The notes beneath the pieces are model-generated. The model worked only from the letters and a program-made list of their open reading frames with translations, did not search any database and was not told the origin of the DNA. Positions 4,706 to 63,606 of a DNA stretch of 64,000 nucleotides are shown here, one piece after another (the stretch's first letter is position 1; each line of letters begins with the position of its first letter). Made by a program: the position numbers and the translations under genes. The stretch comes from Leptodontidium sp. MPI-SDFR-AT-0119 (lineage: Eukaryota; Ascomycota; Leotiomycetes; Helotiales; Leptodontidiaceae). Location of the stretch: NCBI GenBank assembly GCA_020726505.1, contig JAHLEZ010000015.1, positions 186,001 to 250,000 on the forward strand. Direction: 5' to 3'.

Positions 4706-7700
4706 TCAGTGTATCTCCAGGTCTATCCGAGCAATGCCAGTCAATTCCTCCACAAAGTCTCTGTACGACCGCCTCGTCCAAGTCTCCGTTTGATATCGCA
4801 CTTCAATACCTTGGGGATCAACAATGACAGCCTCGACAATTTCTTGCTCCGGCGTCTTGTACCTCGATGTGGCACGCCGAGGCGGCAAATCCGCCATCAA
4901 GACATCTCCATCAGAATCGTAGTGTACTGGTTGCTTTTGAGAACTCTGGATTGACCCTGTACCGTCAAACTGACCGGGCTGGACAGGTAGTTGCGAAGTC
5001 TCTGGCGGTGCATCGGTCATTTCAATGTCCACCCCATTTTCGCTGCATTCAATTTCACGAATTGTGCCATCTCGGACTACCACCAGACTTTGTATACCCT
5101 GGATCTGGCCATCGTCGAGCTTCCATACCGTAGCAATACCCGATCTGCTGAATGCCCAGACCGTCATATGTGGTCCAGAATCGATGGCCAGATCAACGAG
5201 ACCCTTACAAGTGCCGATCATCTGGCCTCGGATCTTGACAGGCCACACCCTTCTGGAGAGGATACCAGGGGCAGGCTCCGGGGAATTGTGAAGCCATTGC
5301 TGCAGCTCGTCTTCCGGCCACCAGTTCATCCACTCTTCGCTGGGCTTTTCCTCGCTGGATGATGCTGCTTTGAGCCAGTTGGCAGTAGATGAAACCTGTT
5401 TGGTTTGACTCGCCCCAAAAATGTCGGTTGGTACCGAGAACAACCAAATACTTTGCTCCAGTCCAGTGCCAAAGGCTGCACAGACTCTTACTCCATGGCT
5501 GAGATCTGAGCCGGCGGCATATGCAACGGGTGTCGATGTTGCCGTGGTCGATGATCCCATTGCTGAATTTGACTCTGGACAATGAAACCATATCTTACGT
5601 AGTAACTTAGTTGGTCCACCCACAGGTGCATCACTGCCCAGGCAGAGGAGTCCAGACGCCGGATCAGTGAACAATATGTGGTAGCCCTAGGGTAAAATGA
5701 GCCATCAAGTGTCAAAATAGTACGCAGAACGTTAAATTGACCACCTACATCGCTCAGCGGTATAGCCCGGTAATGATCCGAGCAATCCATCCGGCCGATT
5801 AATGAGCTCCTACTTGCGTCAATCCGAAGTCGAGTCAAGATTCCTTGCGCAGCCCCAGGCACATGACCAGTAACATCCTCGGGGTAGTCAAAGTGGCTCA
5901 ATCCCCACCCGAATCTCTCCCAGAATGGACTGGTCCTGGCTCGGTGTCCAAAGGCTCTTGAGGACATTGAAGGTCGCTCGTTGGGACGGCTGGCACTGCT
6001 AATAAGCCGAAGTTTCTTAGCTGAATGAACACTCTTCCGGGGCGGTAAGAAAAACAAATAGTCGCTTGGTGCTGTAAGCGGGAACCATCTATTCAAATCC
6101 TGACCTGTAAGAGCATCTACCCAGTGCAATTCAAGTCCCGAAGAACATCCAAAAGCAACACATCGTCTCTGAGGGCAAATGGCGACTGATCTGGGTGGGT
6201 CATCTTCGGAACAGAGGTTTCTGTATAAAGACCTGGGGCCACTCTCTACCGGCATAGAGTTGTTGCCCCGTTCTGAGCTCAGGTCGGGACTTTGTTGTCC
6301 AAGATAATATCTATTGGGTATATCACCCTGGAAAACGTCCTGCCATACGGACTCGTTCCCCTTGATAGGTAAACATATGCCCCCACAGAAGACGAGAGCG
6401 TCGAGCTTACCTGTGCAGTGGAGTACAACAATGAAGTATCCGAATCTCGATGTCTGAAATGTCTCTGTTCCTCTGTTGTGTTTTTTGAAGGGGGTGGCGG
6501 TGTGGAAGATTGATTCAGGACAGTAATGTCACATACCAAGCCCATTCGTCCATCAAGCAAAATAGCTATCGCATACCGCTGAGAAGAAGTATCCATGCTG
6601 CAAGCCAGAACCCTTCTGGGGCATATAATGCTTGTCACAGGGCGTAGAAGACCTGGAAAGCAGGCAGAGCCAGCAGAATTGCGAGAACGATTCAGCTCGT
6701 ATACGTAGACCAGACAACCGTTCGCTGCCATAAGGAACCTACCACAGCTGCTGACCGTGAATATAGTACTGGCCAAATCGGGACCGGGGTAATGCACCTC
6801 GATTTCTGTAAAATCTATCGTGGAGATTTGGCAAAGCGCTGAGTTAGTTCTGGAAAATCGTGAGACGTCGGGTCCCAAGGCACATTCTCGGGCAATCCGT
6901 TTGCTCATGAGCCATTCTGTGCTCATTGTCCGAAACCCGCTTAGGGGAACATTGGTGTCATCTTGGATGCCGTCCGAATATCCTATCCGGCGAAGCATTG
7001 TGATGAGTAACTGATTGTCTAGTGAGCTATTGAACCACAAACGGCATGTATGTCGAGCCGAGTTGAAGTCCCCAGGTGCGAGTTGGTCATAAATTTGCTG
7101 TATGATCTCGGTGGGTAACTGTACTATAATCGTCAACTACATGAAGGTTGGAGGTCTGCGGACATTGCTAACTTACATGCGGCAGATGGGCGGACTTTAG
7201 AGAGCGAATGAGGAGGATCTGACCATGGAGAAGATGACTTCACAGCCATGTATTCCAGGTGCTCGGTTTTTAGATTCGGTTGGGTGCTTTTGTCGGGAGG
7301 AAATGTTGGCGCCGGAAACAATGGTCGACAGTCGCTGAAAGCCGTAGCGATCGTATGTTCAGGCTGAATCTGAGAACTTTGGGATGCCATATCAAGTGAG
7401 CGTCTCAGCGCTGAGTGAACACCAGCAGATGTGCTCCTCTTCCCACTAAGAATCTCGGAAACAGAGCTACATATTGGAGCATGAGGGCAAGGTTCGAGCA
7501 AATCATCGTCAAGAGCCGCGCGAGGATCGTTGGGGTTTTCGAATAATATACTACTGCGACTGAGAGTGCGTTTCTGCATGCGTGTAGTCCCGGTGTTCAT
7601 GGCCGATTGTGGCAATGGCGAGCATTTTGCTGTTGTGCCATCGGCTTGCTTTGCTTTCCCCATACCGGCATCTACACCATCTAGCCCAGAAACATCGCCA

Positions 7701-24714: not shown

Positions 24715-25515
24715 ATGGCTGAAAAATCATCACTCTCGGAAGACCCGGAGAGATCTGGTAGATCAGATGATCAACATGCAAGCAAGAAGCAGAAGAAAGA
24801 GATCCCCGATTTCTAGTATGTGACCCCCACCACCCCAGCCCACTCCTTTCGGATTAGTATCAATTACTCAGTGGAAGATTGAATACTAATCTCTACTAGT
24901 AATCCCAAATCACTCGTAACTTTCCTCGTCGGCCCAGGTTCCACCGAATTCCTGATCCACAAGGAGGTTGTTTGGCTTCACTCGGACATCCTCAGCGCAG
25001 CGTTCAATAGTGGATTTACAGAGGACCAAACACAAACCTACCGTCTGGAGGATACATCCGAAGGCACCTTCCGACTCTTCATGCAATGGCTCTATTGTCA
25101 AAACTTCAAGATAATTCAAGGCCCCGAGCACATATATCCCGAAAATTGCCCTCTGGAATGGGCCGAAGACACGGCTCTAGTCGAGCTCTGGGTTTTAGCC
25201 GACAAGTTCGTGATCCCCCGTCTCCAGAACTTCATCATCGACACCATGCAAAAGATATTCGAATACTCCAACTACATCCCAGTCCATACGTTCCACTACC
25301 TGTACATAAACACTGCTATGGATAGCCTGCTGCGCAGATACATTGTCAGACTCTGTGTGGTGTTCGCTCACAAAAGCCTGTATGACAAGTTTTACCAGTA
25401 CTTTCCTCACGATATGCTGGTCGATATTGCGATGGAGTATGCATCCCGAGCGGAGACTTTGGACAGGCCTGGACTTTCCGTTGCGGACTATCATGTCGAT
25501 ACAAGCATCGGCTGA
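24715..25515 (+). CDS. BTB/POZ domain protein (paralogue B)
   Basis: Two exons, 24715-24815 and 24900-25515, 238 residues. The 84-nt phase-2 intron sits directly before the BTB domain, exactly as in paralogues A and C. Exon 1: acidic/Ser-rich head ending ASKKQKKEIPDF. Exon 2: NPKSLVTFLVGPG, LIHKEVVWLHSD, DQTQTYRLEDTSEG, FMQWLYCQ, LVELWVLADKF, IPRLQNFIIDTM. A later segment (YHYLYIN-type, HDMLVDIAMEYA) marks the shared C-terminal region. It probably acts as a dimerising adaptor; no catalytic or DNA-binding domain is visible. A longer start at 24465 is possible through a leader intron. The 3' end lies only about 75 bp from a decayed GST fragment on the other strand. Confidence 0.82.

Positions 25516-31820: not shown

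Positions 31821-31857
<37 letters not shown>
31821..31857. repeat. T26-A11 homopolymer junction
   Basis: Twenty-six T directly followed by eleven A, about 90 bp upstream of the HET gene ATG. It can fold on itself and could be a relic of a poly(A)-tailed insertion or an assembly-sensitive tract. Confidence 0.85.
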
Positions 31858-31944
31858 CTCCCGCCAGTGAGCCGTTGCGTTCAATTGTATAGACGCCCTC
31901 CAATTATCAATTATCGCTGTTTTCGACTCACGTCACCAGGAAAC

Positions 31945-32980
31945 ATGCGGCTTGTAAAAGTCGACGCCGGAGAAAAGTTGAGTTTGATAGAATTTTTTGG
32001 GAACAACATTCCTCCCTATGCTATCCTTTCACACACCTGGGGATCTAATGGCGACGAGGTCAGCTTCAAAGATCTCGTGAACCAAACCGGCAACGACAAG
32101 ATTGGCTATGCCAAGATCGAGTTTTGCGGCCGACGAGCTTCTGCCGACGGTTTACAATATTTTTGGGTCGACACCTGTTGCATCGATAAATCGAGCAGTG
32201 CCGAGCTCACAGAGGCTATCAATTCTATGTTTCAGTGGTATCGGAACGCCGCCAAGTGCTATGTATACTTATCAGATGTCTCGATATATGACTTCAACCA
32301 GGCGGACCGCCTTCGGAAGTCAGTTTTCCAACAGTGCAGATGGTTCTCTCGGGGCTGGACACTGCAAGAGCTTATCGCTCCAACAGGAGTAGAGTTCTTC
32401 TCACACGAGGGCGAACACTTGGGCGATAAAAAGTCCTTGGAGAAGGAAATCATTGAGTCAACCGAGATCAATGTCTTAGCTCTTCGAGGCTATCCTTTAT
32501 CGAACTTTACCGTTGCTGATCGAATGTCATGGGCGGCAAAGCGTACGACTACACGAGAAGAAGACAATGCGTATTGCCTGCTTGGGATATTTGGTGTTTA
32601 TATGCCACTCATCTACGGTGAAGGTAGAAGAGCCTTTACCGGCTCATCGAAGAGATCAACAAGTCTTCGAAAGGTCAGTTTATTGTTTCTCATTGGGAAT
32701 TTTCTTTTGGCTTTACATGATTATATTTATCACTTGACATTGGCTAAATAGTGATTTCTAGACGAGTTTCAACTCTTGGGAGCTGCTTCAGATGCTGTCT
32801 CGCCTTCATCCTCACAAGCACTTCAAAGACCTGGTCAGTACCTTCTCAATCAGACGTTACTATCACCGCAAATTATTTACGAGACGAAAACCATATCTCT
32901 TCCAAGACTCAACTGTCTTTTCTTTTGGCACAATGCTGACAGGAAACGTTAAGAACTGGATCGCGCCGAGCTTGTTCAAT
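31945..32980 (+). pseudogene. HET-domain gene, broken after the HET domain
   Basis: The ATG at 31945 starts MRLVKVDA and a full HET (heterokaryon incompatibility) domain: YAILSHTWG, YFWVDTCCIDKSSSAELTEA, INSMFQWYRNAAKCYVYLSD, RGWTLQELIAP, REEDNAYCLLGIFGVYMPLI, YGEGRRAF. At about 32637-32640 one base is missing: the expected continuation lies in another frame (RLIEEINKSS) up to a donor-like GTCAGT at 32675. Beyond the acceptor-like CTAG at 32761, the frame that leads toward the NACHT gene meets TAA and TGA (about 32951 and 32980). HET domains trigger cell death in non-self recognition, and the intact neighbour downstream suggests a former HET-NACHT-ankyrin protein. If the missing base is an assembly error, the linker stops would still separate the two parts. 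Confidence 0.7.
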
Positions 32981-32982
32981 GA

Positions 32983-34919
32983 ATGAGATCACATAATCCT
33001 TACACAAACCATTTAGCAGCCCAGCGGAAGAAGCAGGCGCATACAGAGTCATGGTTTCTTCGCGGAAACCAATACTCTCAATGGAAAGGCGGATTAACTC
33101 CCTTGCTTTGGGTAGCTGGCAGCCGTATGTTTCCAATCTTCATATATTTGATTTCAACTGACTATTACAGCTGGTTCTGGTAAGACTGTTTTATGGTAAG
33201 TGATCACTTCGCCTTCTAAAAGTTGTTACTGATCAATAGCTCTACAATCATCGAAAATCTACGCGAATACTCCACCATGGATACCTCGGCGATGATGGCG
33301 TATTACTACTTCGATTTCAGCGAGGCAGACAAACTAACGCTGGACTCATTCATCCGATCTATCATTTTGCAATTGACTGCCAATCTTCCAGAGATCCCGC
33401 AAGATTTGTCCAGCCTGCATGCAAGCTGCAAAGAAAGCAAACAGGAGCCGCCAATGGAAAGCTTGAAGCAAGTCCTCCGTAACATATTGATGAGAAGTTC
33501 CAAAACTATTATTGTTATTGATGCTCTGGATGAATGCTCTCAGTCTGAGGAGCTTGTGCAATTCATTGGAGAAATGATCTCCTGGGGAGGCTCGAAATTA
33601 CGACTGCTGGTTGTAAGTCGACAGCACTTCGAAGGTGCGGATGCCTTGGAAGAATTGCGGCCCAGTTACGTTTCTATCCAAGATGAAGTTGCCAATAACG
33701 ACATCTTGACTTTCGTGCAAGAGATCTTGAGCAAAGATGTCAAGCTCAGAAACTGGCCGCCTCAAGTCAAGAAGGAAATTCAGACGGCATTAGTTTCGAA
33801 GTCCAATGGCATGTATGGAATCTCCAGTCAGCTTGCTTTCAACACAGTAGTAACGCGCAAAACAGGTTTCGATGGGTAGCATGCCAGACCGATATGTTGA
33901 AAAAATGTCGGAGGCAACAAGACGTCGATACCGTTCTTCTCAGCCTTCCGCCAACCTTAGAGGAAACTTACGATCGCATTCTTGATGCTATCGATGATAC
34001 CTTCAAACAGGATGTACGAGCAGTGCTTCAATGGCTAGCCTTCTCCGAACGACCATTGCGGCTGGAAGAAGTTGTGGAGATCGTGGCATTCGACGGACCC
34101 GATGTAGCCTTCGACGTGGACAGGCGTCTTTTGAACCCCCAAGAAATTTTGACAATGTGTTCTTCTCTCGTTGTGTCGAACGAAACATACTATTACGATT
34201 ACGAGCGTAATAATGTGTTGGGGCACGAAAGGGCCCCCATCACAGAGCTGAGGCTTGCTCACTTTACCGTCAAGGATTATCTTCTGTCGCCAAGTCTCAA
34301 AGAATCGCGGCATTCGTACTATAGCATAGAGGAGAAAACATCAAGCTTGCAGATCGCGAAATCTTGCTTGTCGTACTTAACTATGGATGAATTTTCATCC
34401 GGCTTCCAAGGCAGAAGAATACAGGATCGCCGCTTGAATCAATGGCCTTTGCTAGATTACGCAGCAAATTTCTGTGGGGTCCATCTGCGAAACGTCGAGA
34501 ATGATCTTGACGTCACCACTCGAAATCTTATACAAAAGCTGATGTCGTCGCATAAGTTACCAAACGGGGGAAACTTCGGGACTCTTGTTGGAACAAAGTG
34601 GCGCTTCGCTCCTCCGGATCTAATCCAGACAACAGAGCCTCTTTACTTCGCCTCGTCTCATGGGCTCGTCTCCGTGGTTCGACTATTACTTTCTGATGCG
34701 GCGTCTGTTGATATAGAAGTAAAAGGGGGACGCTATGGCTCAACCTCTTTGCAAGTTGCGTCATATCGAGGGAATACGGATTGTGTGAGATTGCTATTGG
34801 CAGCGGGAGCTGACCCTAACGCACCCAATGACCTGGGCGAGACACCACTGCTTTGGGCAAACAAGATTGGAGCGGATGAGATTGTGCATTCTTTGCTTAG
34901 GTATGGTGCAAGAAGGTAA
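32983..34919 (+). CDS. NACHT-ankyrin NLR-like protein
   Basis: Four exons: 32983-33124, 33171-33195 (25 nt), 33240-33812 and 33866-34919; all phases agree; 597 residues. The tiny exon 2 supplies most of the P-loop: the spliced product reads LLWVAGSPGSGKTVLCSTII. The NACHT domain follows (TIIVIDALDECSQ as Walker B, LLVVSRQHFEGADAL), then LPPTLEETYDRILDAID, WLAFSERPLRLEEVVE and LRLAHFTVKDYL, all typical of fungal STAND proteins. Three ankyrin-like repeats end the protein (TEPLYFASSHGLVSVVRLLL; LQVASYRGNTDCVRLLLAAG; GETPLLWANKIGADEIVHSLL). NLR-like STANDs oligomerise on ligand binding to trigger defence or incompatibility. The usual N-terminal effector is absent; a broken HET gene lies immediately upstream. 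The ATG at 32983 is the first usable one but may be an internal residue of a longer ancestral gene. Confidence 0.8.
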
Positions 34920-35255
34920 CACGAGTTTCATAGACTTGTGACTTATACATCGTATCAATATTGGTTTAGCAGAGCTGCTTCGGCATGAATGGAAAGGTTT
35001 GCACTGCCTTACTAATTACGATTGGTAGTTTTATAACCCCAAACAAAACTTGAGGGGCATAAGTGTGCAATGCTTGAAAGAGGTTGGGTGTTGGTGGCGC
35101 TGTGCTGCGGATTCGGTACTATTGCTTAGGAGTCGAACACGCTCGCCGCCTCTGGCTCCGAAGCCTCAACGACTTGAGTATGTATCTCGAGTTTTGAACC
35201 TCAACTGAACTTTACTGAATACTATTCTTCCCAGCAGGTCATCACATTCACAACA
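34920..35255. other. Intergenic, promoter of BTB paralogue C
   Basis: 336 bp between co-oriented genes. Nothing else seen. Confidence 0.5.
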
Positions 35256-36094
35256 ATGTCGCCCTCCAAGCCAGACGATTCCACGAATCGCGTCGCGAAG
35301 ATCTACCCAACAAGAAGTTCAAGAGGGTCTCAGCTTCATTCTCGGAAGTCTTCGTGCGTCTTGTCGGCTTTCTAGTACTTCCCTTGGATTATGTTTCCGA
35401 TTTTTCCCTGCTTTCTAGCAGTTTCTTCAACATTAATCCTAACGGTGTGACAAGGGACCCAAAATCGCTTGTCACCTTCATCGTCGGTTCAGAAGGCAGC
35501 ACCAAAGAATACCTCGTCCACAAGGAGATTGCTTGCCACCATTCGAGTGATCTAAAAGCTGCTTTCAATAGTGAGTTCATTGAAGGCTCCACTCAGACTT
35601 ATCGTCTTGAGGATGTCAGCGAAGCCTCCTTCAACTTCTTGATGCAGTGGCTGTACTCTCAAAGCCTCAATTTGCTGGCCGATGACCCAGATCATGTGGT
35701 GAACATGAACGATGAAGGAGAAGATTTCGACCAAGACATGCATTTGGTAAGTGGAGCCAACATATTACACTAGACTGGGCATAGCATTGTCTATCACGAT
35801 AACTTAACTGACCAGAACTAGGCTGAACTATGGATTCTTGCGGACCTATTGGCAATACCAAATCTACAAAATGCCGTCATCGATGCATTCCACAGTATTT
35901 CCCCTTCACACGACTGTCTCCCTTCCTATTATACCTATCATTACATCTATCAAAACACCACCACCAGCAGTGAGCTCCGGAAATACATATGTGCACCTTT
36001 TGCCAAGCATATTGGCCCAGGCTTCATCAAAGGGTACGCTAAGCTCTACCTGTCTGAGATGCTGGTTGATATAGTAGAAATGCTCCTATCGTAG
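35256..36094 (+). CDS. BTB/POZ domain protein (paralogue C)
   Basis: Three exons: 35256-35353, 35419-35746 and 35822-36094; 232 residues. Intron 1 is phase 2 and lies just before the BTB domain, as in paralogues A and B. An extra phase-0 intron (35747-35821) is unique to this copy. Exon 1: MSPSKPDDSTNRVAKIYPTR with Ser/Arg-rich tail. BTB: DPKSLVTFIVGSEG, LVHKEIACHHSSDLKAAFNS, STQTYRLEDVSEASF, FLMQWLYSQ. C-terminal region: AELWILADLLAIPNLQNAVI. The donor GTGCGT of intron 1 is weak but frame and architecture support it. It appears intact and is slightly shorter at the C-terminus than the others. Confidence 0.78.
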
Positions 36095-44965: not shown

Positions 44966-45916
44966 AGTAGAAGTAATCCTAGACTTCATTTTCATCTTGC
45001 ATTGTATCCATGATTCTTGCCCCACTGTCGTCCACCCATGCGGAAAGCTCAATCTGCAAAGGGTAGCAAAAGATTGATACGGCGGTAGGATACATCTACA
45101 TCGAGAACCATTGAGCCCAGGTATTCTCAAGCCGAAGAATTCAATTCGATTAATACTTCCGCGTCCTCCTTGTTAAATAAAAAGTCTCTTTTCGGGTGCT
45201 TCTCTCCGTACTGCGATTGATCATCACGTTAGCAGCTGAACACTCCCAAGGTCACCACTGCATACTGCTACTCGACTTCCTCAGAGAACAAGCAACTCCC
45301 TCAGACTCCGTGCTGGGCTTAAAAGTCAATTGTCTAAATAAACTTCATCCCCTCATCGTCTCTCTATCATCTCTCTAGCCTACTCCGGCTGCTCACCTTC
45401 CAGCTCCGAATGAATCAAATTTCGTGAGACGTCAAATTCACCTCCGCTTGAAAAGAAAGAACATTGACTGCTCAGCAAGGACTTTCCTCCTCCAAGACTT
45501 GGCTCTTCTAAAGGACTATTTGATCGCCACTCAGTATCAAGAACTTCTTACCATCAGCTTTCGACCAAAGGAACCTCACCTTGACTCCTTCGCAGCGGTG
45601 TCCCTCCCTCGTCCAAGGCTCCGCTCTTCTCCAACACTACTTCTAGAAAACACAACGTTAAGAACTTCTTGCCATCGCGCTTCGAACTAGGGACTCCCGA
45701 ACCGGCAGGCAGGTATTCTTGAACGCCATACGTCTTGAACATATCTCAGATAGCTTCGAAAGAGTTTCCACAGTTACGAATATTCGCGAACAAAGCACTC
45801 AGCGCTTTCTCACATTTCAACCTACCTTCTACGACCTGACCAATTCACCTCTGAAGATCAAGTTTCGTCATTTTGTCATCTCCAGTATTCCCCTCACCCA
45901 TACCTCATCACGATCA
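44966..45916. other. Intergenic, about 950 bp
   Basis: 3' flank of NLE1 and C/T-rich former promoter/leader of a BTB pseudogene. Two related 30-40 bp stretches occur near 45540-45590 and 45655-45690 (AAGAACTTCTT-CCATC-GC-TTCGA), suggesting a short duplication. Confidence 0.5.
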
Positions 45917-46701
45917 ATGTCAAGCAGCGCCTCACAACCAAAGGTGGTGTCAAATATGGTCGAAAAGTCCATCCGCAAAGAGCGCCCAGAAAAGCAGAGC
46001 TGCCAAAGCCAAACTTTACGTAAGATCCCATTCCCCTGCAGACGTTCCAAGCCTGTTTACCTTACTAACTTGTGGGCCTGCAGTGAACCTGCAACTCAAG
46101 TCACCTTCCTCATCGGACCCGGCGATGATCCCGTCAAGTTCCTTGTTCATAAGGAATTCGCATGTTACTACTCAAGCGTCTTGAATGCAGCTTTCAATGG
46201 CAACTTCGTGGAGGGACAGACTCAAACTTACGAATCGAGGATACTTCGCCAGGCGCGTTCAGGCTCTTTGTGCAATGGCTGTATTCCCAGAAGTTGGTTC
46301 TCTGCCAACTTGCGGACACGGATGAGCTTGAAGTCATGGATGTTGACGCCGCTGCTGAAGATATGAATCTTGCGGAGCTCTGCGTACTTGCAGACAAGCT
46401 CGCAATTCCTAAATTGTAAAACTTCGCCATGGATTGCATCATCAGGATTGCAAGTGAAGTCTGGGTTGCAATAAAGCCATTCAAGTACATATATCAGAAT
46501 ACTGTTTCAGATAGCCCCTTGCGGTCTTTCGTCATCCATCAGTGTTTGTACCAGGTCAGCCCAGACGGGTTTGAATTCTACGCTGAATGTTTTCCTCACC
46601 AGCTTCTGATTGATGTGGCCATCTACTCCGCTAGGAACTTGAGGAGAGAGGTCTTGGATGAACCTTTCCCTTCCCACAAGTTCTATGTTCTGGAGAACTA
46701 G
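45917..46701 (+). pseudogene. BTB/POZ paralogue D, pseudogene
   Basis: Same two-exon plan as A-C: exon 1 from ATG 45917, intron about 46020-46080 (GTAAGA...TGCAG), then a BTB exon (ATQVTFLIGPGDDPVKFLVH, KEFACYYSSVLNAAFNG). Three lesions stand out by comparison with the intact copies. First, the exon-1 frame that starts at the ATG is not the one that splices in phase; one shift is needed near 45985. Second, after EGQTQTY one base is missing near 46232, moving IEDTSPGAFRLFVQWLYSQK to another frame. Third, TAA at 46417-46419 stands where A, B and C all have Gln in the LQN motif, consistent with CAA to TAA. The frame then runs on to 46701 (DCIIRIASEVWVAIK, YIYQNTVSDSPLRSF). It cannot encode a full protein. 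Confidence 0.78.
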
Positions 46702-49797: not shown

Positions 49798-52700
49798 TTA
49801 CATATAATCTACGAGGTCTAAGAGCGAGAGTACAAGTCGAGAAGAGTACTGAGGTCGAGGTCGAGGTCCTCCACTCTGGCAAGTTTCACTGTCTACAGAT
49901 GGTCGGTCAGTAAGATAGTCTTGTCTCCAGTCGCGATTTGAAGACTCACCAAGTACTCGCCGCAGCTCTCCAAGTCTGGCGACTAGTATCGACCCCGACG
50001 AGGTGCGAGCAGCTCTCCGGCTCCGCATGTTGGTGCTCATGGGTTGGTATATGCGACAGAACACGATATCCTCCACGTCGCGCTTGTAGTCATGCAATTC
50101 CTTGATCATAGCGGCCTGAGCTTCCGTCAATCTTCCCGAGCCCAGCGAGAGCTGTACGTTTCCCAAACTTGCAATTTCCACACGTTCAATCAGGAAAGCT
50201 AGACACATGGAGATGAAGAGGCAGGACGCCCATGAGTTCGGGAAGCCGTTTAGGAGCCCGAGGCCGGTGAGTACTTGCTTCAGTATTCTGCATTGGAGCT
50301 TATGGAAGGCCACTTTGACTTGGAGATGGAGGAGTATAGGTGATTGAGGGTGCCAATCGCTGTAGCGATGCGGCTTGATCTGACTCCCAAATGTGTCGTC
50401 TTTAAACGACTCAGGTAGCTCATCCAATAGCAGTGCTTGCGATATAACCCTGTGACTGGCGATGAGCTTGATGGCACTGCGCATAGTGACGACTTCGCGT
50501 TTGGGCATCTGATAAAGTCAACAATCGCTACTAAACAACATTGGGCCAGAGCATGCTCACATCATCTTTATGGTCATGAAACCATCCAAACATGCGGTAC
50601 AAGACTTGGCTAGACTGATCACTCGCGCAATATTGCAGCAGAAATGGTGTACATTCTACCAAGTGGTTGTCCACAATGTCATCGAGATAATTATTGAATG
50701 TTTCAGCCATTACTTTGATATCGACATCATGCAGACCAAGAGGAAGGGGGCTTCTGAAGTCTGTGGTTGTACCAGGGTCTCCCTGGAGCGACATAAGGTC
50801 ACATGAGGGCGAGAACTTCCGCAGAGTCAGAGGTAGTGGTCGACGTGGGATGCACGATAGTGTGACGTCCACATCTTGGGATTCCCATTGGCTATTCAAG
50901 ACGATTGATTCGGTGAAACCATTCAGATATGTGTTCGTGAGATGTCCAATAATTAAATTCGGAAAGAAAGAAGACATGATGCATGGCACAGGCCAACTTC
51001 CGGATGAAGATACGAGACTACGACAGAGATGGCGAGAGCTATAAATGTGCTTGCACTGAGGGCATATGGTAGCACCAAGAAATCCCTTACAGAATAGTCA
51101 GTAATGATACGTTTCTGGGGAAAGGTGGCTTCTACGCTACTCACCTCTTTGCCACAGCCTCCGCAGACAGAGGTCCTGGTGAGAGTTTGATCGGGCGTCT
51201 GACAACATCTTCCAAAATAGGGGCTAGGTTCAGTCGCGGATTTATGGTCGTTGATGAGTTCGACGAGAGTTGCAGCTGACGGTCTCTCTTCTCGATTTGG
51301 GTTGAGCATTTTACAAGACCAAGAGAATGGTGCATTATCGAAGCTTGACAGATCAGCCATTTCCTTGGCCCAAGCAACGATCCCGGACTCATTGTTGAAG
51401 AAGTATTGATTATCCGCTCGCTTAATAAAGAAGTTTCGTAACTCGGAAACAGGCTTCCGCTTGAGTACAGTGGCCATTTCGAAGAATACACACCCGAGGC
51501 TCCAAATGTCGGAAGAAGAGTCGCGTTTCTTGCTCATTATGACCTCGGGGGCTGCATAGAGTCGAGTGAATCCACAGAGGGTTGATGTGGTAGAGCTTTT
51601 GGCATCCTTCCAATCCCAAGCAAGTCCGAAATCCACTAGCAAAACCTGTTGTTGATGCACTAAGATATTGGCTGGTTTTATATCGCGATGTCTGATTCGA
51701 TTCAGGTGCAGATAGCGAACCGCTGTAGCGAGACATCCGAACCAATGTCTTATTGGAAACAATACATTAGGTTCTAGAGAATGGCCGGCTTCGAGGAGAT
51801 AGTTCTTGAGGTCTGAATCGGCGATTGGAGACATGACTAGGACTAAAAGGCGTGAGGTAGTATAGCTTCCAGCCTGATTTTCATGTCAGATGTACTTCAC
51901 GACTCATGAGCACGGACAAGGTGTAGGAATTCGAAGACAGGATAAACTGGATGGCGGATGGGAGCTTGAATGCCACCACGTGACTATGGGCAGCTAGACT
52001 CAATGGAAAGGAGGGATGAGCAGCTATGAAAAGATGCGTCCTTACAATTTTGACGCAATGCCTGTGCCTTATCCGACTTAATGCATGTAACTCGCGTTGA
52101 AATGCCTGAACACGACTCTTATTGATCAAGACACAACTTGTACGCCGGATGCTCTTCCTGGCATAAACCTGGCCATCGGTGAGACACAATACTTTCTCCA
52201 CAGTACCGAGCGAGCCTTCTCCGATATGTCGAAGAGGTTGGAATGGTGGGTGACTTTCAGGTGTAAAGTGGCCATGGCTGCTTGCATACCCGAGATGGAA
52301 ATCTGCGGGTCGGCCACAAACCAGTTGTTGAGCCTGGATGAACTGAGGCTGTACGTCTTTTGGGATGAGCATTTCGAGCATGGACTCTGAAGTAATTGGA
52401 AGCCACAAATCATCGACGCCCACTCTATTCAGTTCGTCAAGCAGTGATAGCTTGCCGATGTCTTGAAGGATGATGTAGAGCCTAGGACTCTGGCTCCATA
52501 TCAGATGCCCATCTTGAAGAAGGACAGTGGCGACTCGATCGACATAACATTGGCTGTAACGGTTGTTGTCTTGCATCGCAGGTTGGTCCGGAACGACCAT
52601 GCTTCCAGTGGTCGCCAGTTTTTCGGTGTTATGAGGTTCGACTGCTCAGTATTGATAGTTAGTCTCGGATTTGGTGATGCTTGCCGTCGGTACGAATCCA

Positions 52701-56961: not shown

Positions 56962-57843
56962 TCAGTTCACGAACATGAAAAACGTACTAGGAGATAACTT
57001 GAAATTACTCTCAACCCCCGAGCTCAAATCCAAATTCTTCAAGTCGAGAATACCCTCACCACCAAACTGAGGACGAAACCCTCGCTGAGGATCAAGTAAT
57101 CTTGTATACTTCGCCTCTCGCCGCGATATTAACTTTCGTGAAAAGCTCCCTGCCCCAACTTCCGCCTCTGTCTTGAAAGTCGCAAAAAAAGGACCATCAC
57201 AAGATACAATGACCGCAAAAGAGCATGTATGAGGTAATCCCTCCCTCACTAGTCTCTTTTCACTCAATGTCCACCACACAATAAACGGCTTGGATGGGGG
57301 TCTGGTCGCCCCCTGGATAATCATCTTGTGTTCTGCTGTGTAGCTACTTGATTTCGATATGGTGAGGTTCACTTCAGGAGTTACTGGTGCTAGTGGAATA
57401 CTAGCCGTGGCTCCAGTGGAGAGTTCCCAAGTTCTCTTTTCTTGAGTGATCTCGCCAGTGGCATATATGGGTACATAAGACAAGATACATGGTCGCGAGG
57501 AGTGTGGGATAATATCCGTCTGTTTTTGGAATCTGATCTCGAAGCTGGCGTTCTTGAACCGGTATTTCTGCGGTGAGTACGGTTGGAGGACGACATCAAA
57601 GACAAGCAATGAGGATTGAGAATCGTTGTAGGTTCCTGGCTGGATCGATCGAAGACGTACGGTCATGTATGATTTGGAGATGATGAGCTCTAGCACCCCT
57701 TCTTGGTCTTCTTCCTCTCCTCCTTCCAGTTCGGGGCCTTGTGGCCCAGCAAGTGACATAGCTGAGACACTTTGACCCAGGGTCTTTCGTCTGACCTCCA
57801 AGGCTTCAAACTCGAGCAGGATAAGCTCATCTTGAGGATCCAT
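56962..57843 (-). CDS. Unknown protein, single exon, 293 residues
   Basis: ATG at 57843 (MDPQDELILLEFEALEVRRK), uninterrupted to 56962. Residues 1-45 are acidic with a possible coiled-coil start. The rest alternates short beta-like strands (LELIISKSYMTVRLRSIQPG, SSLLVFDVVLQPY, PEVNLTISKSSSYTAEHKMI, CSFAVIVSCDGPFFATF) and suggests an all-beta, immunoglobulin- or C2-like fold. There is no signal peptide or transmembrane span. I do not recognise the family. It is divergent, over 335 bp, from the TPR-CHAT gene, which is worth noting given the cell-death theme of that locus, but no functional link is shown. Confidence 0.65.
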   Translation of the reverse strand: MDPQDELILLEFEALEVRRKTLGQSVSAMSLAGPQGPELEGGEEEDQEGVLELIISKSYMTVRLRSIQPGTYNDSQSSLLVFDVVLQPYSPQKYRFKNASFEIRFQKQTDIIPHSSRPCILSYVPIYATGEITQEKRTWELSTGATASIPLAPVTPEVNLTISKSSSYTAEHKMIIQGATRPPSKPFIVWWTLSEKRLVREGLPHTCSFAVIVSCDGPFFATFKTEAEVGAGSFSRKLISRREAKYTRLLDPQRGFRPQFGGEGILDLKNLDLSSGVESNFKLSPSTFFMFVN

Positions 57844-58178
57844 GGTTGTCTTGATAGAGGATTCTGGTCCAATGGTTATTAGGAAAGTACAGAGTTGAAG
57901 CCCTTTCTGTCAAACAGATGAAAGTAGCATGATTTCGTGGACGATGTGGAAACATGAATGGAGCAGGCAAGCCATTCATACTTCATATTTGGTGAGGCTG
58001 AATCACCTCTTGAGCAGTAATCTCGTGTCAAAATATTACTGGCTGGGCTTCCATCGCTTGTCCTCGGCCCGGGTGGACCTCAGCAACGTCGTGCAGCCTA
58101 GCCTTATGATAGTTCATCAAGTCTTCACTCTTTTCTTTAAGTACCAGATTTCCAAGATTCTGTTCTCAATCTCCAAAG
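57844..58178. promoter_or_regulatory. Divergent promoter region, unknown gene / TPR-CHAT
   Basis: 335 bp between two divergent ATGs; contains a C/T-rich stretch close to the TPR-CHAT start. No specific site recognised. Confidence 0.5.
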
Positions 58179-61100
58179 ATGGGTGAACGACTCGATATTT
58201 ATGCCAGTCACCTTCTCAGCAGCGTCACCAATGATAAGGACCAGAAGCTCCTCCTCAAAGCAGCTGAATTCCAAAGTAGCGGTCGCCTTTATGACGCGGC
58301 TCGTCAATACGACAGTCTCCAAGATTCTCGCGACATTCAAGGTGTCGTCATCTACGAATCTCGGCTCCTGCTCATGAAAGGAGACTTTAAAAAGGCATCT
58401 TTAACACTTGACAAGATAATTGGCCCCACTACAAGTATCATATCGTCTCCAATCGACGCTCTGATACTACTGATGAAGGCACATTGCAATTGTTTTTTGC
58501 GCCTTCATCTCCAAGAAGCGGTCGATGCCGCGCGTGCGGTGCGGCAGACGTGGTTGGAGCCAGAAGTGGCCGATAGAGCGCCGTTCACGGACACTTATGT
58601 ATGTGCCCTGGAAGTCGTGGCGTATAGTTGATTGATGGCTTGAACTTTGATTTGGTTGTCTCTGACCTTGATAGGTTCTGCTTGAGTATTATTATCAAGG
58701 CATCATCACCTTGAAAAGTATGCTCCAGGAGCGTCTATTTGTTGAGGCGGAGCAACCAACGGTTCTCAAGCAACGAAGAGAACAACTTTACAATACCCTG
58801 AAATCACAGGGCAGGCTCTATGAAGCTTTTGAAGTAGCCAGAATGGAGATGAAATTTGGAGAATCGAATTTCGAGCAGTTGCGCATCTTCCAGGGCTATC
58901 TCGAGTTGTTTGAGATAGTAAAGTGACCGCCCAACTGACGGTAGAGATTCTGTGCCTAACCTCGTTATTCAGATCCTTTGGTGGACTCTGGAGAGACTAT
59001 GCCCCATTATTTACTGAGCCTCTATGGATATTCGAAGCCAATATGTGCAGCTCACATTCGTATATCGATTGGCAAAACCCTTTGCAAACTTGATCGTCAA
59101 AACGAAGGGGCGGAAAGTTTCAGAACTGCACTCGATTTATTTTCGGAACTCGATTCGATTAATGGGCAAGCACTCGCCCGGCTGCAGATTGCTCTTCTAG
59201 ATAAAGCGGCAATGACTGCCCCAATGAAAGTCTGCGACGACTTCCAAAGTCTAGTAGACGATCTCATTGGCTGCAAAGATTGGATTGGGACAGCTTCAGC
59301 TCTGAGTGAACTCTCGGAAATGCTTCAGTGCGGTCCACCCTCTTTTCAACCAAAATTTCAAGCTTGCCAGCGAGAGATCAAAAAGCTCTATGACGAAACG
59401 GGGAACAAATTCAGCTTCTGGCACATGCAGTCACAAGTCTGGCAGCTCGAGTTCATGAAGCCATCTTCTTTTGGAAAGGGCATTGAGATGTGTGAAGCTT
59501 TCTTCGACGACGAGCTCAAGCACCCTTCCTCAAATCGACTTTTGAAAGAAATATTTGCAACTATGCTAATGGTCGCCTATGAAGCAATTGGAGACGACTT
59601 AAAGGCAGAGGAGAATGCCGCGCGTTGTCTGTCTCTAACAAAAGAGGTCGGCGACAGAAAGCTCATCATAGCCAACGAGATATCGGTTGCTGGGCTTCGT
59701 CGGAAGCACCTGAAAGTATCTGCACCTATTTCAGAAATCGAAGAGAGTATAATATCTCTGGGCGAGCTCTTCCATGAGAGTAGTGGTACCGACGGCAGAC
59801 AGCGGCTTGCTGAATATCACCATCTAGTTTCCTTAACTGTTTATCTAGCAGATCTCTGGATTACACGATGGGATAGATGCAGTATCGAGGAGCATCATAA
59901 GGAAAGCTTCTTGGAAAATGCCATTCAATGGACCGAAACCGGACTGACTCTTATGCCACACGTACACACCGATGTCAGGAGCTCATCCCGAGGAGCTCTC
60001 GATTTCGTCCACGCGGAAATTCTGCGACGCATGGATCGAACAGCGGAGACTATACGGCTTTGCCAGGAAATGCTTTCGCTCCTGGACGAGAAGACGCCAA
60101 CGAGAGATAGAGCCAACACTCAACATTTGCTAGCCTCTACGCTGATGATACAAGGTGCTCAGAATCCCTCTTTGGAGAACTTTAATGGTGCCAAAGTCGC
60201 ATATCTTGAAGCCATAAAGGCGGCACGGGAGCTTGGAGATATGTTAATGGCCGCTGGATGCCTGAAAGCACTGGTCAAAATGTCTGCTGGTTGGCCCCAA
60301 ACCTCAATTCCCACTAGCCTTTCTCGGGCTGATGTTCTGGGCTGGATACAGGAATGGGATGAGATATGGGAAGAGATACTGAGCGAGGCTTCTACCTACC
60401 GTGGATTACAGGGATTAAATGTTCGGCAAAGAATGCGACAAAACAACTCTACTGATCTCTACAGGGTTGCTATCGAGCTTTGCAGAAACGACAACGAAAT
60501 ACTCCAAGCTTGGAACTGGACGCAAAAGGCAAAGGCGAGAGCAGTTGCAACATCACTGGGGTTGAGTCGCTTGGTACCCTCCAACATGTCGCATGGCTTA
60601 TCGCAGAAGTCTCTCACACTGCTTGATCGAGAGCACGATCTTCTGAACAATATAGAAAATTCGGCTCAGAGTGGAAGATTTCACCTGAGGATGGAGCATC
60701 TTAATGTGCGCAAGGAAATGAACTCGATTCCGGAACTGCGCCCTATTCAAGCAATTCGGCAAGGTGGAACCCTTGATATTAGTGATCTAGAATCCATGTT
60801 CGGGGGAAGGAAAGATGTACTCTGCGTCGATTGGGTTGAGCGAGAAGATGGAACCTACCACATCATTACAGTCCGTCCTGGAGAGCTTCCACGATACTTT
60901 GCTACAGATGTCACTGCAACTGAAGTTCGAAAATGGTTGGAGTGTTACATTTACGCTGAAGATAGTATGAAAAAGCTGGAAAATGCAACCCTCGAAGAAC
61001 TGGAGGTACTGGAGGGACTCGTTTCTCCTCTTTCCGATATGGCGGCTGAAGGCGAGCTTCTACTTTTCGTACCCACTGGCCTACTTTGTGCTGTCCCTCT

Positions 61101-61257
61101 TCATGCATTGAATTCGACAAGAGAAGGAGTCACCCATCCAATTATCGAATGGAATCCGGTCGTGTACAGCAATTCGTTAAGCTTTTATAGAAAACGGTCA
61201 CAAAGCTTGCAGATATTTGATGCGTCGTGGCGAGGACACTTGGGAAGCCACATTTGA
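58179..61257 (+). CDS. TPR-CHAT protein, truncated in the CHAT protease domain
   Basis: Exon 1 58179-58598, exon 2 58675 to about 58922, exon 3 58973-61257. The first junction is clean. At the second, the acceptor (TTCAG, 58972) leaves two bases while available donors leave zero or two, so a one-base indel or unusual donor is implied. The protein (about 980 residues if joined) is almost entirely helical with TPR-like repeats (YDAARQYDSLQDSRDI, AESFRTALDLFSELDSI, AIQWTETGLTLMPHV, AAGCLKALVKM), typical of fungal TPR-CHAT proteins. The start of the CHAT domain is present (LLLFVPTGLLCAVPLHALNS, then WNPVVYSNSLS), but the frame ends about 25 codons later at 61257, before the catalytic His and Cys. 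From about 61185 on, the DNA encodes a different CHAT gene on the opposite strand. CHAT proteins are caspase-like cysteine proteases. This copy cannot be catalytic. Confidence 0.72.
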
Positions 61258-62410
61258 CAAACGTTCTTGCGAGATTGATCTGAACGCCCGAGGCGGAAGC
61301 GTTCTCTCCAATAGGATGATTGTTCGCCGTATCTTGCGAATGCTCCTCGGCTGGCAACTTTTGAGCTGCAAGTGGATCTTCTCTACCTGTCTCACAGGTA
61401 TTTAGGGCTACCGTGAGAACACCAGCCTCTCGAAGCAGCGTGCCAATGTCCTGCGCTGGCACGAAGACTGTCTTTCCAAACCTTGCACGATTTGGTCGTG
61501 ATTCCGACGAGAGAAAGTACAACCCAGCCCTGTAAATTTTATAACAGTCGGCAAAGATCACGTTCCCATTTTTTTCCTGTCGGTTGCTAGTGAACAGACC
61601 CTTTAGATTGATGTATAGCACCGTGCAGATCAAAATGGGCCAGGTCATAATATCCTTCCCCCTTTGCCGCTAATAAACCTTGGAAGGACCTCCAGCTTCC
61701 TGGTCGACAGACTTCGAGACGTACATCAAGACCTCCGGATAGTTGCTCTATAGCTTCTAGTAAGGGCTCAGAAACCAGGAATGGGTCAATGTCTGGGGGG
61801 TGGATTGTTCGATTCAGATGATTCGCTTTCCTGTGGTTCTGAGTCTTTCTCTGTATCAATTCGTCTCGCAACAACGAGTAGTATCCTGAAGAAGCTCAGT
61901 TTGATATGAATCTGCTGGCTGATCATAGGCTCAGTACCCATCACATTATAGTCGACTTGTTGATCCTATACGACACTTCGTCTTCCATTGGATTGATAGG
62001 ATCTTGTGAACGAACTGGTCCCAGTGTAGTCTAAAGATGTTGGAATTCGCTACCTCATTGCTCCGTTCGGAAACATCGATGATGATAGTATCTATGCCGG
62101 GAGATGTGCCAATCTCATGGGGAATTGCTAATTGACGAAATATCCCAACCGCATAGTCACTAATTTGCTTCTGTACTTTGGAGGCCTCTCGGAACTTCCA
62201 CGAGGTTCGAGTCGGGAACCATTCCAGATACCTCCGGACATTTCTTTCGATTGACATGTTGAAAGGGTACAAAATCGAGATCTGGGACCCGACCACCTGA
62301 TCGTTTTGGTGGTGCCCCTGAACAGCCACGTGCCAGCCACCTGACTCATCCTCAAGTTCACCCGACTGTGTGGGAGCGCAGTCTATAAGCCGTAACGTGT
62401 AATTGCTCAT
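61142..62410 (-). pseudogene. Second CHAT-domain (caspase-like) gene, broken and 3'-truncated
   Basis: ATG at 62410 (MSNYTLRLIDCAP). Motifs appear in order on the minus strand: a leader ending FRLHWDQ; the strand ILLVVARR after an acceptor near 61890; FLVSEPLLEAIEQLSGGLDV; the catalytic His region YYDLAHFDLHG; AGLYFLSSESRPNRARFGK after a probable 70-nt intron (61605-61536); the catalytic Cys region LTVALNTCETG; and LARTFVKCGFPSVLATTHQI. Breaks: one base missing near 62010 after HWD; one base gained in the C6 run (G6 on + strand, about 61794-61799). The homology also stops at AAGCTT (61179-61184), beyond which minus-strand reading is just the antisense of the TPR-CHAT gene. Catalytic His and Cys are both encoded, so it was once a potential protease. 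It is divergent from the gasdermin-like gene. Confidence 0.72.
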
Positions 62411-62744
62411 GACCACGAGTGTATGAACGAATAAAAACCTATAGAAATCTCAAAGAATGGAGAAATTGAAACCGAATTGAATGCAGCAACCTGGGCTGAA
62501 GCTGCCAAGCTGGGGCTGAGCCCGCGCTGTGTGGCTTATGGTAGGACGTTTCAAATGTGACACTACGGATACTTCGTTGATTCGTCTTCCTATTCTTTGC
62601 TTCGTGCATTCTCATTGAGCTACAGCTTCACAGAAAACGTGGACTGAATATGCAAGGATAGTTGTGCTAGCTATCTTCCATCAGTCTTCTATCGTGAACA
62701 CATAGATCGACTTTACAACACCACTACCTATCAGCGAGGACAAC
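62411..62744. promoter_or_regulatory. Divergent promoter region, CHAT / gasdermin-like
   Basis: 334 bp between two opposite ATGs (62410 and 62745), so the two genes could share control. No specific site recognised. Confidence 0.5.
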
Positions 62745-63606
62745 ATGCCACCTACTGACTCCAAGCTCTTGCTCTTCCTTGACGAGACGCTTCCCGCCGA
62801 CGAGGGGGGATCGCTCCTAAGGACTTTCGTAGCCGACGTACGATGTCCTACAAACCGCTACGAGCCCAAAAGCGCAAGCAATCCACGGCAGCACCCATTC
62901 CTAAAGCCAGATGATATTCTAAAACCTTACGTCGAGGATAGAACTATCACTGCTGGGACCAGTAGTGGCCGTGCTTTTGAGACAGGGTTGTTCAGCTTTA
63001 TTTCTGGCAATACCAATTCCAGCAATTCTCGCCAGGCAGAACTCATCTCGAAAAGCATCACCACCTACAGTCTCCGCTCACCGGATGATGTGTTCAACAA
63101 AATTCGCAATGATGAGAAGTACTGGCAACAAGTTGAGGACCTACCTCATGCGGACGAGCGGCACAGAAAAGCTGTACTTTATTCGTGGCTAAAAAATCGC
63201 TACGAATCCTGTCATTACTCTCCAGACATCTAAGAACCGATCTCACGGCGGAGAGCTGACGCTGCCACTGATTGAGGCTGCGACTGGCGGTCTAAATCTT
63301 CCCGCAGGCATCATCATTGGAGATCCACGCCTTGTAGCATCATGCGACAGAGGAACATCGGCTTCACAGAGCGGGCTGGTTGAAGGCGAGCGGTTGTTTG
63401 CTATTCAATACTGGGCCCTCGTGAAGAAACGCCAGACAGAGCGAAAGCGGAAAGGGAAACACTTCAAATGGCCGAAGTCTAAGAGGACGGAAGGTATCCA
63501 AGCGAGACCGCCACGAGGAAAGCATATCATGTTCCATGGTAATGATGACTCCTCAAACGATGGCGACGATTCTGACGATAAGGCCGAAGAGGATCAGGAC
63601 AACTAG
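62745..63606 (+). pseudogene. Gasdermin-like (RCD-1/HET-Q1-type) pore-forming protein gene, broken
   Basis: ATG at 62745, single exon, about 286 codons end to end, the size of fungal gasdermin-like proteins. The N-terminal part has an early strand (LLRTFVADVRCPTNRYEP) and a loop rich in Ser/Asn, then FNKIRNDEKYWQQVED. The C-terminal part has LTLPLIEAATGG, a Gly-rich stretch, GERLFAIQYWALVKKRQ, a strongly basic region and an acidic Asp-rich tail. These features and the neighbouring protease genes are what suggest the family; it is an inference by eye. Breaks: a one-base gain in an A run near 63160-63166 changes frame, and in the frame of the downstream half there is TAA at 63190-63192. Family members are inactive until a partner protease removes the C-terminal tail, then form membrane pores and kill the cell. 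This copy should be non-functional as written. Confidence 0.55.

What the first reader, a model, noticed from the sequence alone, without database searches (positions are those of the whole stretch)
61142..63606. Candidate gasdermin-like / CHAT-protease cell-death cassette, all members broken
A gene with gasdermin-like features (EAATGG, GERLFAIQY, basic then acidic tail, about 286 codons) is divergent, across 334 bp, from a CHAT protease gene that still encodes its catalytic His and Cys motifs. It is known that fungal gasdermin-like genes often neighbour subtilisin- or CHAT-type protease genes whose products cleave and activate them. Seen here: both genes carry frameshifts, the gasdermin-like gene also a stop. 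Inference: a dead haplotype of an allorecognition locus, expected to be polymorphic, with intact alleles in other strains.
Basis: partly seen in the sequence, partly recalled or inferred. Interest (0 to 1): 0.9.

Follow-up and report, generated by a model that had tools for sequence, protein, structure and literature searches.

The report
Broken fungal gasdermin and CHAT cluster
This stretch of a fungal genome holds what look like the remains of a self-killing gene cluster (a gasdermin-like pore protein and caspase-like CHAT proteases) in which the pore gene has lost its reading frame and a small inversion seems to have cut two protease genes in half, a kind of system already known in fungi.

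Summary
Four relatives with open frames lie in the same 77-Mb genome, three of them divergent from a CHAT protease gene. Profiles of the family, with or without the window pieces, hit Neurospora gasdermin RCD-1-1 first among 177,635 PDB sequences (E 0.0048-0.011). The window gene carries a frame change and a stop inside a conserved motif. The divergent CHAT gene (CHAT2) is also broken, but one of its frame changes is probably an intron. CHAT1 has its own neighbour, an unnamed 315-aa gene at 56965-57909, whose relative again sits divergent from a close relative of CHAT1. This cluster type and its pseudogenisation are known in fungi; allorecognition and strain polymorphism could not be tested. 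A new, inversion-broken member of a known kind.

The parts
56965..57909 (-). Gene X: 315-aa open frame with no Pfam match, divergent from CHAT gene 1; candidate conserved partner of CHAT1
   Evidence: no Pfam family at E <= 1; 23% identity over 255 aa, E 2e-17, to the gene divergent from the CHAT gene of L018; 5 places in the genome at E <= 1, window's own included
58113..61182 (+). CHAT gene 1 (CHAT1), 5' part: TPR-like region and first part of the CHAT domain; first ATG 58179; textbook intron at 58599-58674; 765-aa open frame 58960-61254
   Evidence: TPR_12 E 2e-4, below Pfam cut-off; 43.6% identity over 55 aa to the CHAT start of L018, 24.8% over 129 aa to L025; intron GTATGT..CTGAC..ATAG, best of 23 candidates; similarity ends at 61182
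61185..61190 (.). Estimated left inversion junction; the 6-mer TTATAG recurs in reverse complement near the right junction (L012 6744-6749 = 64744-64749 beyond the window)
   Evidence: one search found no inverted match over 9 bp between L012 2900-3700 and 6000-7300
61191..62410 (-). CHAT gene 2 (CHAT2), 5' part with the His and Cys motifs; frame-broken; its 3' end is on the other strand at about L012 6742-6993
   Evidence: matches L029 nt 4453-4572, E 0.028, and 4685-4858, E 0.003; the opposite-strand tail matches L029 4871-5026, E 5e-9; frames
61530..61599 (-). Probable intron of CHAT2 (70 nt), otherwise readable as a frameshift
   Evidence: frame-restoring GT-AG, score 7.9, fourth of 13 candidates at this junction; C2 relative L029 has a GTGAGT..CAG stretch at the same place after the His motif, same phase; my reading
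61385..61402 (-). CHAT2 cysteine motif NTCETG
   Evidence: motif meaning recalled
61620..61637 (-). CHAT2 histidine motif HFDLHG
   Evidence: motif meaning recalled
62411..62744 (.). 334-bp divergent intergenic region between CHAT2 and the gasdermin-like gene
   Evidence: first ATGs 62410 minus and 62745 plus
62745..63606 (+). Gasdermin-like gene, about 286 codons, broken: frame change between about 63117 and 63163 and a TAA at 63190-63192 inside the conserved Y..G[LI] motif; acidic C-terminal tail
   Evidence: no second copy found by DNA search of the genome
63942..64000 (-). Start, within the window, of the inverted 3' part of CHAT1 (continues to about 64749 = L012 6749): CHAT profile positions 88-285, 282-aa open frame with HYHGH and VACKSG motifs
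   Evidence: PF12770 E 2e-23

Best explanation
The locus is the wreck of a fungal pyroptosis-like cell-death cluster. Inferred order before decay: gene X and CHAT1 diverge; after CHAT1 comes the gasdermin-like gene, on the other strand and tail to tail with CHAT1; then CHAT2, divergent from the gasdermin-like gene. In a working cluster of this kind a sensor bearing a CHAT (caspase-like) protease cuts the short C-terminal tail from the gasdermin, whose N-terminal domain then makes pores in the cell's own membrane (reported for other fungi, inferred here). Supported by sequence: the gasdermin-like gene is a divergent member of a family related to RCD-1, and has a frame change and a premature stop. 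Shown by alignment: each of two CHAT genes is in two complementary pieces on opposite strands; one inversion of about 3.56 kb (61185/61190 to 64744/64749, estimated) accounts for all four pieces. Inferred: no working gasdermin or complete CHAT protease comes from this locus, and the inversion is the younger lesion, because both CHAT1 pieces are still open frames while CHAT2 and the gasdermin-like gene have decayed.
For: Family: relatives found beside CHAT genes and by genome search (E 1.6e-18; E 0.0012); the profile of four relatives alone finds both window pieces (11.1 and 10.6 bits; 0 of 656 and 0 of 732 scored shuffles reach them). RCD-1: best of 177,635 PDB sequences in 3 of 3 searches with family profiles, which share most of their sequences; a control profile of family X (5 sequences of the same genome) finds no RCD-1. 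Inversion: CHAT1's first part aligns to L018 up to nt 4716 and its opposite-strand part from 4762; CHAT2's first part aligns to L029 up to 4858 and its opposite-strand tail from 4871; Pfam CHAT positions 88-285 on the opposite strand; TTATAG near both breaks. Lesions. Open CHAT1 pieces: no internal stop against 36 and 32, and 17 and 12, in the other frames. Biology of fGSDM-CHAT clusters: passages of PMC10197012, PMC12881547, PMC10989679.
Against: RCD-1 E-values are modest (whole sequence 0.0048-0.011; best single stretch 0.034 and 0.064), a phage decoration protein comes second (E 0.096, 0.071), and single-sequence searches found nothing. In one search a 54-aa frame (L029 3715-3876) scored 10.7 bits, level with the window pieces. 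No gasdermin Pfam or PADLOC family is hit. No structure model could be made. Frame changes near runs of six A or six G (63191-63196, 61795-61800) could be read errors. CHAT2's pieces are not recognised by Pfam and its first part matches L029 only weakly (E 0.028, 0.003). Which lesion came first is not testable here.
Confidence: 0.8

Rival explanations
1. Allorecognition idiomorph: this is one allele of a polymorphic incompatibility locus, kept by selection, like het-Q1/het-Q2; other strains carry the un-inverted cluster or an intact gasdermin.
For: Rearranged, half-pseudogenised fGSDM-protease loci are proposed as a source of allorecognition (PMC10197012 passages); het-Q1/het-Q2 are idiomorphs (PMC12881547 passage); a CHAT protease idiomorph acts as a het gene in Aspergillus fumigatus (PMC11138114 passages). 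CHAT1 pieces are still open.
Against: No second strain is held; four other fGSDM-type genes with open frames exist in this genome, so loss of one is cheap; CHAT1's catalytic piece lacks the first 87 of 289 CHAT positions and an evident promoter (inference).
Confidence: 0.15
2. Sequencing or assembly error: the genes are intact and in order in the real genome.
For: Two of the frame problems lie at or near single-base runs of six.
Against: A TAA inside a conserved motif and complementary opposite-strand pieces of two genes are not homopolymer errors; no inverted match over 9 bp was found between the flanks, so there is no evident repeat to misassemble through; DNA searches found no second copy.
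Confidence: 0.08
3. The small gene is not a gasdermin but another CHAT-associated beta-rich protein family.
For: Modest E-values; no Pfam gasdermin hit; the genome does have another CHAT-neighbouring family (gene X).
Against: RCD-1-1 ranks first in 3 of 3 profile searches and RCD-1-2 third in 2 of 3; the matched parts of RCD-1-1 and RCD-1-2 carry YM[IV]TG where the relatives have [YW]...G; divergent pairing with CHAT genes is a known fGSDM layout.
Confidence: 0.12

Closest known systems
Fungal gasdermin-CHAT two-gene clusters (about 19% of fGSDMs near CHAT genes; PMC10197012 passages)
   Same: Gasdermin-like gene divergent from and within 0.4 kb of a CHAT-type protease gene; a TPR-like CHAT gene in the same cluster
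   Different: Here broken; two CHAT genes flank one gasdermin-like gene and both are cut by an inversion; a third gene, X, accompanies CHAT1
het-Q1/het-Q2 of Podospora anserina (review passages)
   Same: fGSDM about 280 residues with a short C-terminal tail; protease partner; rearranged, partly lost state
   Different: HET-Q2 is a subtilisin-like S8 protease; polymorphism and killing are reported there, untested here
hetB of Aspergillus fumigatus (CHAT idiomorph; PMC11138114 passages)
   Same: Large CHAT protease gene at a locus with an alternative form lacking it
   Different: No gasdermin shown there; tested het locus there, no population data here
RCD-1 of Neurospora crassa (PDB 8JYZ)
   Same: Sequence-profile relative
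   Different: RCD-1 works by pairing of two alleles and lacks a C-terminal inhibitory domain (PMC11760362 passages); the family here has a further acidic tail

Membership tests
Fungal gasdermin (fGSDM) | Sequence homology to the gasdermin N-domain of RCD-1/HET-Q1 | tested here: met
   RCD-1-1 top hit, E 0.0048-0.011, in 3 of 3 profile searches that share most sequences; window pieces belong to the profiled family. HET-Q1 itself not compared. Met with modest E-values
Fungal gasdermin (fGSDM) | Gasdermin N-domain fold | not testable with these tools
   Structure prediction switched off
Fungal gasdermin (fGSDM) | Short C-terminal inhibitory tail removed by a protease | tested here: inconclusive
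   The four relatives and the window gene have 13-21 acidic residues in the last 60; cleavage not testable
Fungal gasdermin (fGSDM) | Genomic pairing with an S8 or CHAT protease gene | tested here: met
   Window gene and 3 of 4 relatives are divergent from a CHAT gene; the fourth follows a C14 caspase gene and lies about 4 kb from a CHAT gene. Three of the four were found by looking beside CHAT genes, so the count is biased
CHAT protease (PF12770) | Match over the Pfam cut-off | tested here: met
   CHAT1 3' part: E 2e-23, 83.7 bits, cut-off 24. CHAT2 pieces: no Pfam match; similar to the L029 region, which is a PF12770 match over the cut-off
CHAT protease (PF12770) | Catalytic His and Cys in one complete protein | tested here: inconclusive
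   CHAT2: motifs in different frames, joinable if 61530-61599 is an intron, but the gene is frame-broken further upstream and lacks its 3' end. CHAT1: both motifs in the 282-aa piece, which lacks the first 87 profile positions
Allorecognition (het) locus | Polymorphic alleles or idiomorphs whose co-expression kills | not testable with these tools
   One genome of the species only; fungal protein search switched off

The most novel reading that the evidence does not exclude
The locus is a compound of two CHAT modules: CHAT2 with the gasdermin-like gene, and CHAT1 with gene X. X belongs to an unnamed fungal family and is a so far unrecognised, non-gasdermin partner (substrate or executioner) of CHAT proteases; the pair recurs in divergent layout at a second site in the same genome.
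Probability: 0.2. Interest if true: 0.6.

Novelty: new member of a known kind. Interest (0 to 1): 0.38.

Why it matters
It shows how a fungal gasdermin-protease cluster can decay: small lesions in the pore gene and one protease gene, and an inversion that separates the sensor part of another protease gene from its catalytic part. Reviews propose that such rearrangements are how some allorecognition loci arise (PMC10197012 passages), so a strain survey of this inversion would be a direct test. The same genome offers four relatives with open frames beside or near protease genes as references, and points to an uncharacterised neighbour gene of CHAT proteases.

Tried and rejected
Searches that led nowhere: single-sequence PDB searches with the window pieces and with two relatives gave chance hits or none. 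Pfam and PADLOC have no model for the gasdermin-like family. DNA searches of the own genome found no second copy of the gasdermin-like gene or of the CHAT stretch. Family X has no Pfam match in the window member and only chance-level PDB hits (best E 0.33).

Considered and rejected: that the gasdermin-like gene is intact with an intron. The best frame-restoring candidates of 11 would remove the conserved Y..G motif that one search shows to be coding. That repeat-induced mutation killed the genes: no second copy was found and the TpA/ApT ratios do not exceed that of the whole window. That all CHAT2 frame changes are introns: the plausible frames between 61800 and 62000 change more often than one intron explains (my reading of three-frame translations; the ILLVVAR linker motif behind it is recalled, not from a call). 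At the intron I prefer in CHAT2, three candidates have a better splice score but would remove the histidine motif or put it out of frame. Whether CHAT1 has a further frame change at 58918-58995 is undecided.

Full report
What was claimed and what is there. The window lies at C7:186001-250000 of a 76.97-Mb genome in 69 contigs. It is fungal by content: a HET-domain frame (E 1.7e-13) followed by NPHP3-type and ankyrin frames at 31849-34919, and a fungal rhodopsin domain frame (E 1.8e-10).

The gasdermin-like gene. Two overlapping plus-strand frames, 62706-63233 and 63193-63606, have no second copy by DNA search, and each finds only itself in the own genome with a protein search at E below 0.1 (the C piece has one further match at E 0.45). 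I fetched the surroundings of 15 of the 16 CHAT matches (the sixteenth, C7:250104-250715, lies just past the window end, in L012) and searched them with the two pieces at relaxed thresholds. Among many chance matches, two centred on GERLFAIQY, at L022 (E 2.5) and L030 (E 0.16). The L022 match lies in a 345-aa open frame divergent from a 1228-aa CHAT frame (E 1.7e-31; TPR matches below cut-off). That frame found a 306-aa relative on C15 (E 1.6e-18). A 329-aa frame divergent from another CHAT gene (L016/L035) found a 388-aa frame divergent from the CHAT gene on C23 (E 0.0012). These four relatives (C15:178k, C16:102k, C23:1724k, C15:680k; the last without its first exon) align with the two window pieces over most of their length.

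Is it really this family? A profile of the four relatives only, run on 2880 open frames of the window and fetched loci, gave the window's C piece 11.1 bits and N piece 10.6 bits (E 0.026 and 0.036). Above them were only the three relatives present in that set and a decayed copy at L030 (15.9 bits); one 54-aa frame at L029, beside a CHAT gene, scored 10.7 between them. Of 1000 shuffles of each piece, 656 and 732 got a score, none as high. Reading the second frame 60 bases further upstream, with X at its stop, raises the score to 21.3 bits because KLYFIRG-X-KI falls on the conserved [YW]...G[LI] motif. So the gene has a frame change upstream of that motif and a TAA inside it. The splice-site search offers no good intron that keeps the motif.

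Is the family gasdermin? Profiles with and without the window pieces have Neurospora RCD-1-1 (8JYZ chain A) as best of 177,635 distinct PDB sequences: E 0.0069, 0.0048 and 0.011. RCD-1-2 is third (E 0.25, 0.46), behind a phage decoration protein (E 0.096, 0.071); an RCD-1-1 fusion construct is second (E 0.13), which does not list RCD-1-2. The three profiles share most of their sequences and are not independent. A control profile from another five-member family of the same genome gives no RCD-1. Single-sequence searches give nothing. The four relatives, like the window gene, end in an acidic stretch, 13-21 acidic residues in the last 60. No structure model could be made. I hold the gasdermin assignment at about 0.85.

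The inversion. The CHAT genes tell a larger story. A plus-strand gene starting in the frame 58113-58631 has a textbook intron at 58599-58674 and a 765-aa open frame with TPR-like and CHAT-start similarity that ends at 61182. The rest of a CHAT domain, positions 88-285 of PF12770 (E 2e-23), lies on the minus strand at L012 5942-6787, that is 63942-64787 and mostly past the window. With L018 as reference the first part ends at nt 4716 and the opposite-strand part starts at 4762; with L015, L017, L021 and L025 the order is the same but less of the pieces aligns, so the gaps are wider. The minus-strand CHAT2 next to the gasdermin-like gene behaves the same way: with L029 as reference it ends at 4858 (E 0.003), and the missing tail, on the plus strand at L012 6679-6993, starts at 4871 (E 5e-9). 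At the left junction the aligned ends lie 8 bp apart (61182 and 61190); at the right one 48 bp apart (L012 6697 and 6745). The 6-mer TTATAG lies in opposite orientation at both (61185-61190 and L012 6744-6749), and I take it as the break, which gives about 3.56 kb. One inversion accounts for all four pieces. No inverted match over 9 bp was found between the flanks, so repeat-driven misassembly is unlikely. Both CHAT1 pieces are free of internal stops (against 36 and 32, and 17 and 12, in the other frames), so I infer that the inversion is young or the pieces are still kept.

CHAT2 frames. Its motif-bearing frames switch several times between 62000 and 61590 (my reading), so it is broken apart from the inversion. 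But the switch after the histidine motif is probably an intron: 61599-61530 restores the frame, and the C2 relative has a GTGAGT..CAG stretch at the same place and in the same phase (my reading of the sequence). So at least one of the apparent CHAT indels is probably not one.

A further partner. Gene X (56965-57909, 315 aa, no Pfam match) is divergent from CHAT1, with 335 bp between the first ATGs. A relative (23% over 255 aa, E 2e-17) is divergent from the CHAT gene of L018. L018 is CHAT1's best CHAT match for the 3' part (E 3e-17); for the 5' part L025, which has no X neighbour in the 9.9 kb fetched, scores slightly better (8e-8 against 6e-7). The genome search gives 5 X places at E up to 1, the window's own included: C15 (1.1e-11), C1 (5e-11), C8 (0.008), C11 (0.2). 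Near the last three there is no CHAT match in the list; the C11 one has an ankyrin-like frame nearby (by eye). So 2 of 5 sit beside a CHAT gene.

How it works. In other fungi a protease-bearing sensor, S8 or CHAT, cuts a short C-terminal piece from its gasdermin, which then makes pores; about 80% of fGSDM genes are clustered with a protease gene and about 19% with CHAT genes (passages of PMC10197012, PMC12881547, PMC10989679). A P. anserina TPR-bearing CHAT protease was reported to activate its gasdermin (PMC12881547 passage). By anatomy the window cluster was such a system, and no longer is. Its decay may be neutral loss in a genome with other copies, or the making of an allorecognition allele, as proposed for het-Q1/het-Q2 (PMC10197012) and as tested for a CHAT idiomorph in A. 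fumigatus (PMC11138114 passages). No data here decide between these; I favour plain loss.

Novelty. fGSDM-CHAT clusters and pseudogenised forms of such loci are a known kind. My five paper searches (20 of 313, 12 of 180, 3 of 3, 10 of 111 and 8 of 600 papers listed), read only as listings and, for five papers, passages, showed no paper describing an inversion that splits two CHAT genes around a gasdermin, nor a named partner like gene X; subscription papers are mostly not held, and the primary paper on fGSDM proteases is not held.

Noticed in passing
56965-57909 (-); L018 791-1681 (-); L043 1189-2325; L044 1063-2172; L045 1312-2277: Unnamed family X, open frames of 297-379 aa, no Pfam match in the window member, two of five members divergent from a CHAT gene.
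   Followed up: partly
L034 5140-8708 (C15:175.6-179.2 kb): A gasdermin-like relative follows, on the same strand, a C14 caspase-domain gene (PF00656 E 3.5e-16), a protease type other than S8 or CHAT.
   Followed up: partly
L030 about 4914-5156 (C15:283.4 kb): Another decayed gasdermin-like copy with stops (EQIFAVEY), 15.9 bits to the relatives' profile.
   Followed up: partly
L029 4400-5060 (C2:2271.4-2272.1 kb): A CHAT gene related to CHAT2 in broken or spliced frames, with a short frame nearby (3715-3876) that weakly matches the gasdermin-like profile.
   Followed up: partly
31849-34919 (+): HET domain, NPHP3-type NTPase and ankyrin repeats in successive frames: a NOD-like receptor type gene, spliced or broken.
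   Followed up: no
1304-2020 (-), 24883-25512 (+), 35219-35770 (+), 45662-46363 (+): Four related BTB/POZ-type genes (45-60% identical over matched parts) scattered through the window; three match Pfam BTB, the fourth by similarity only.
   Followed up: partly
50953-52645 (-): A protein kinase domain gene in two overlapping frames, spliced or broken.
   Followed up: no
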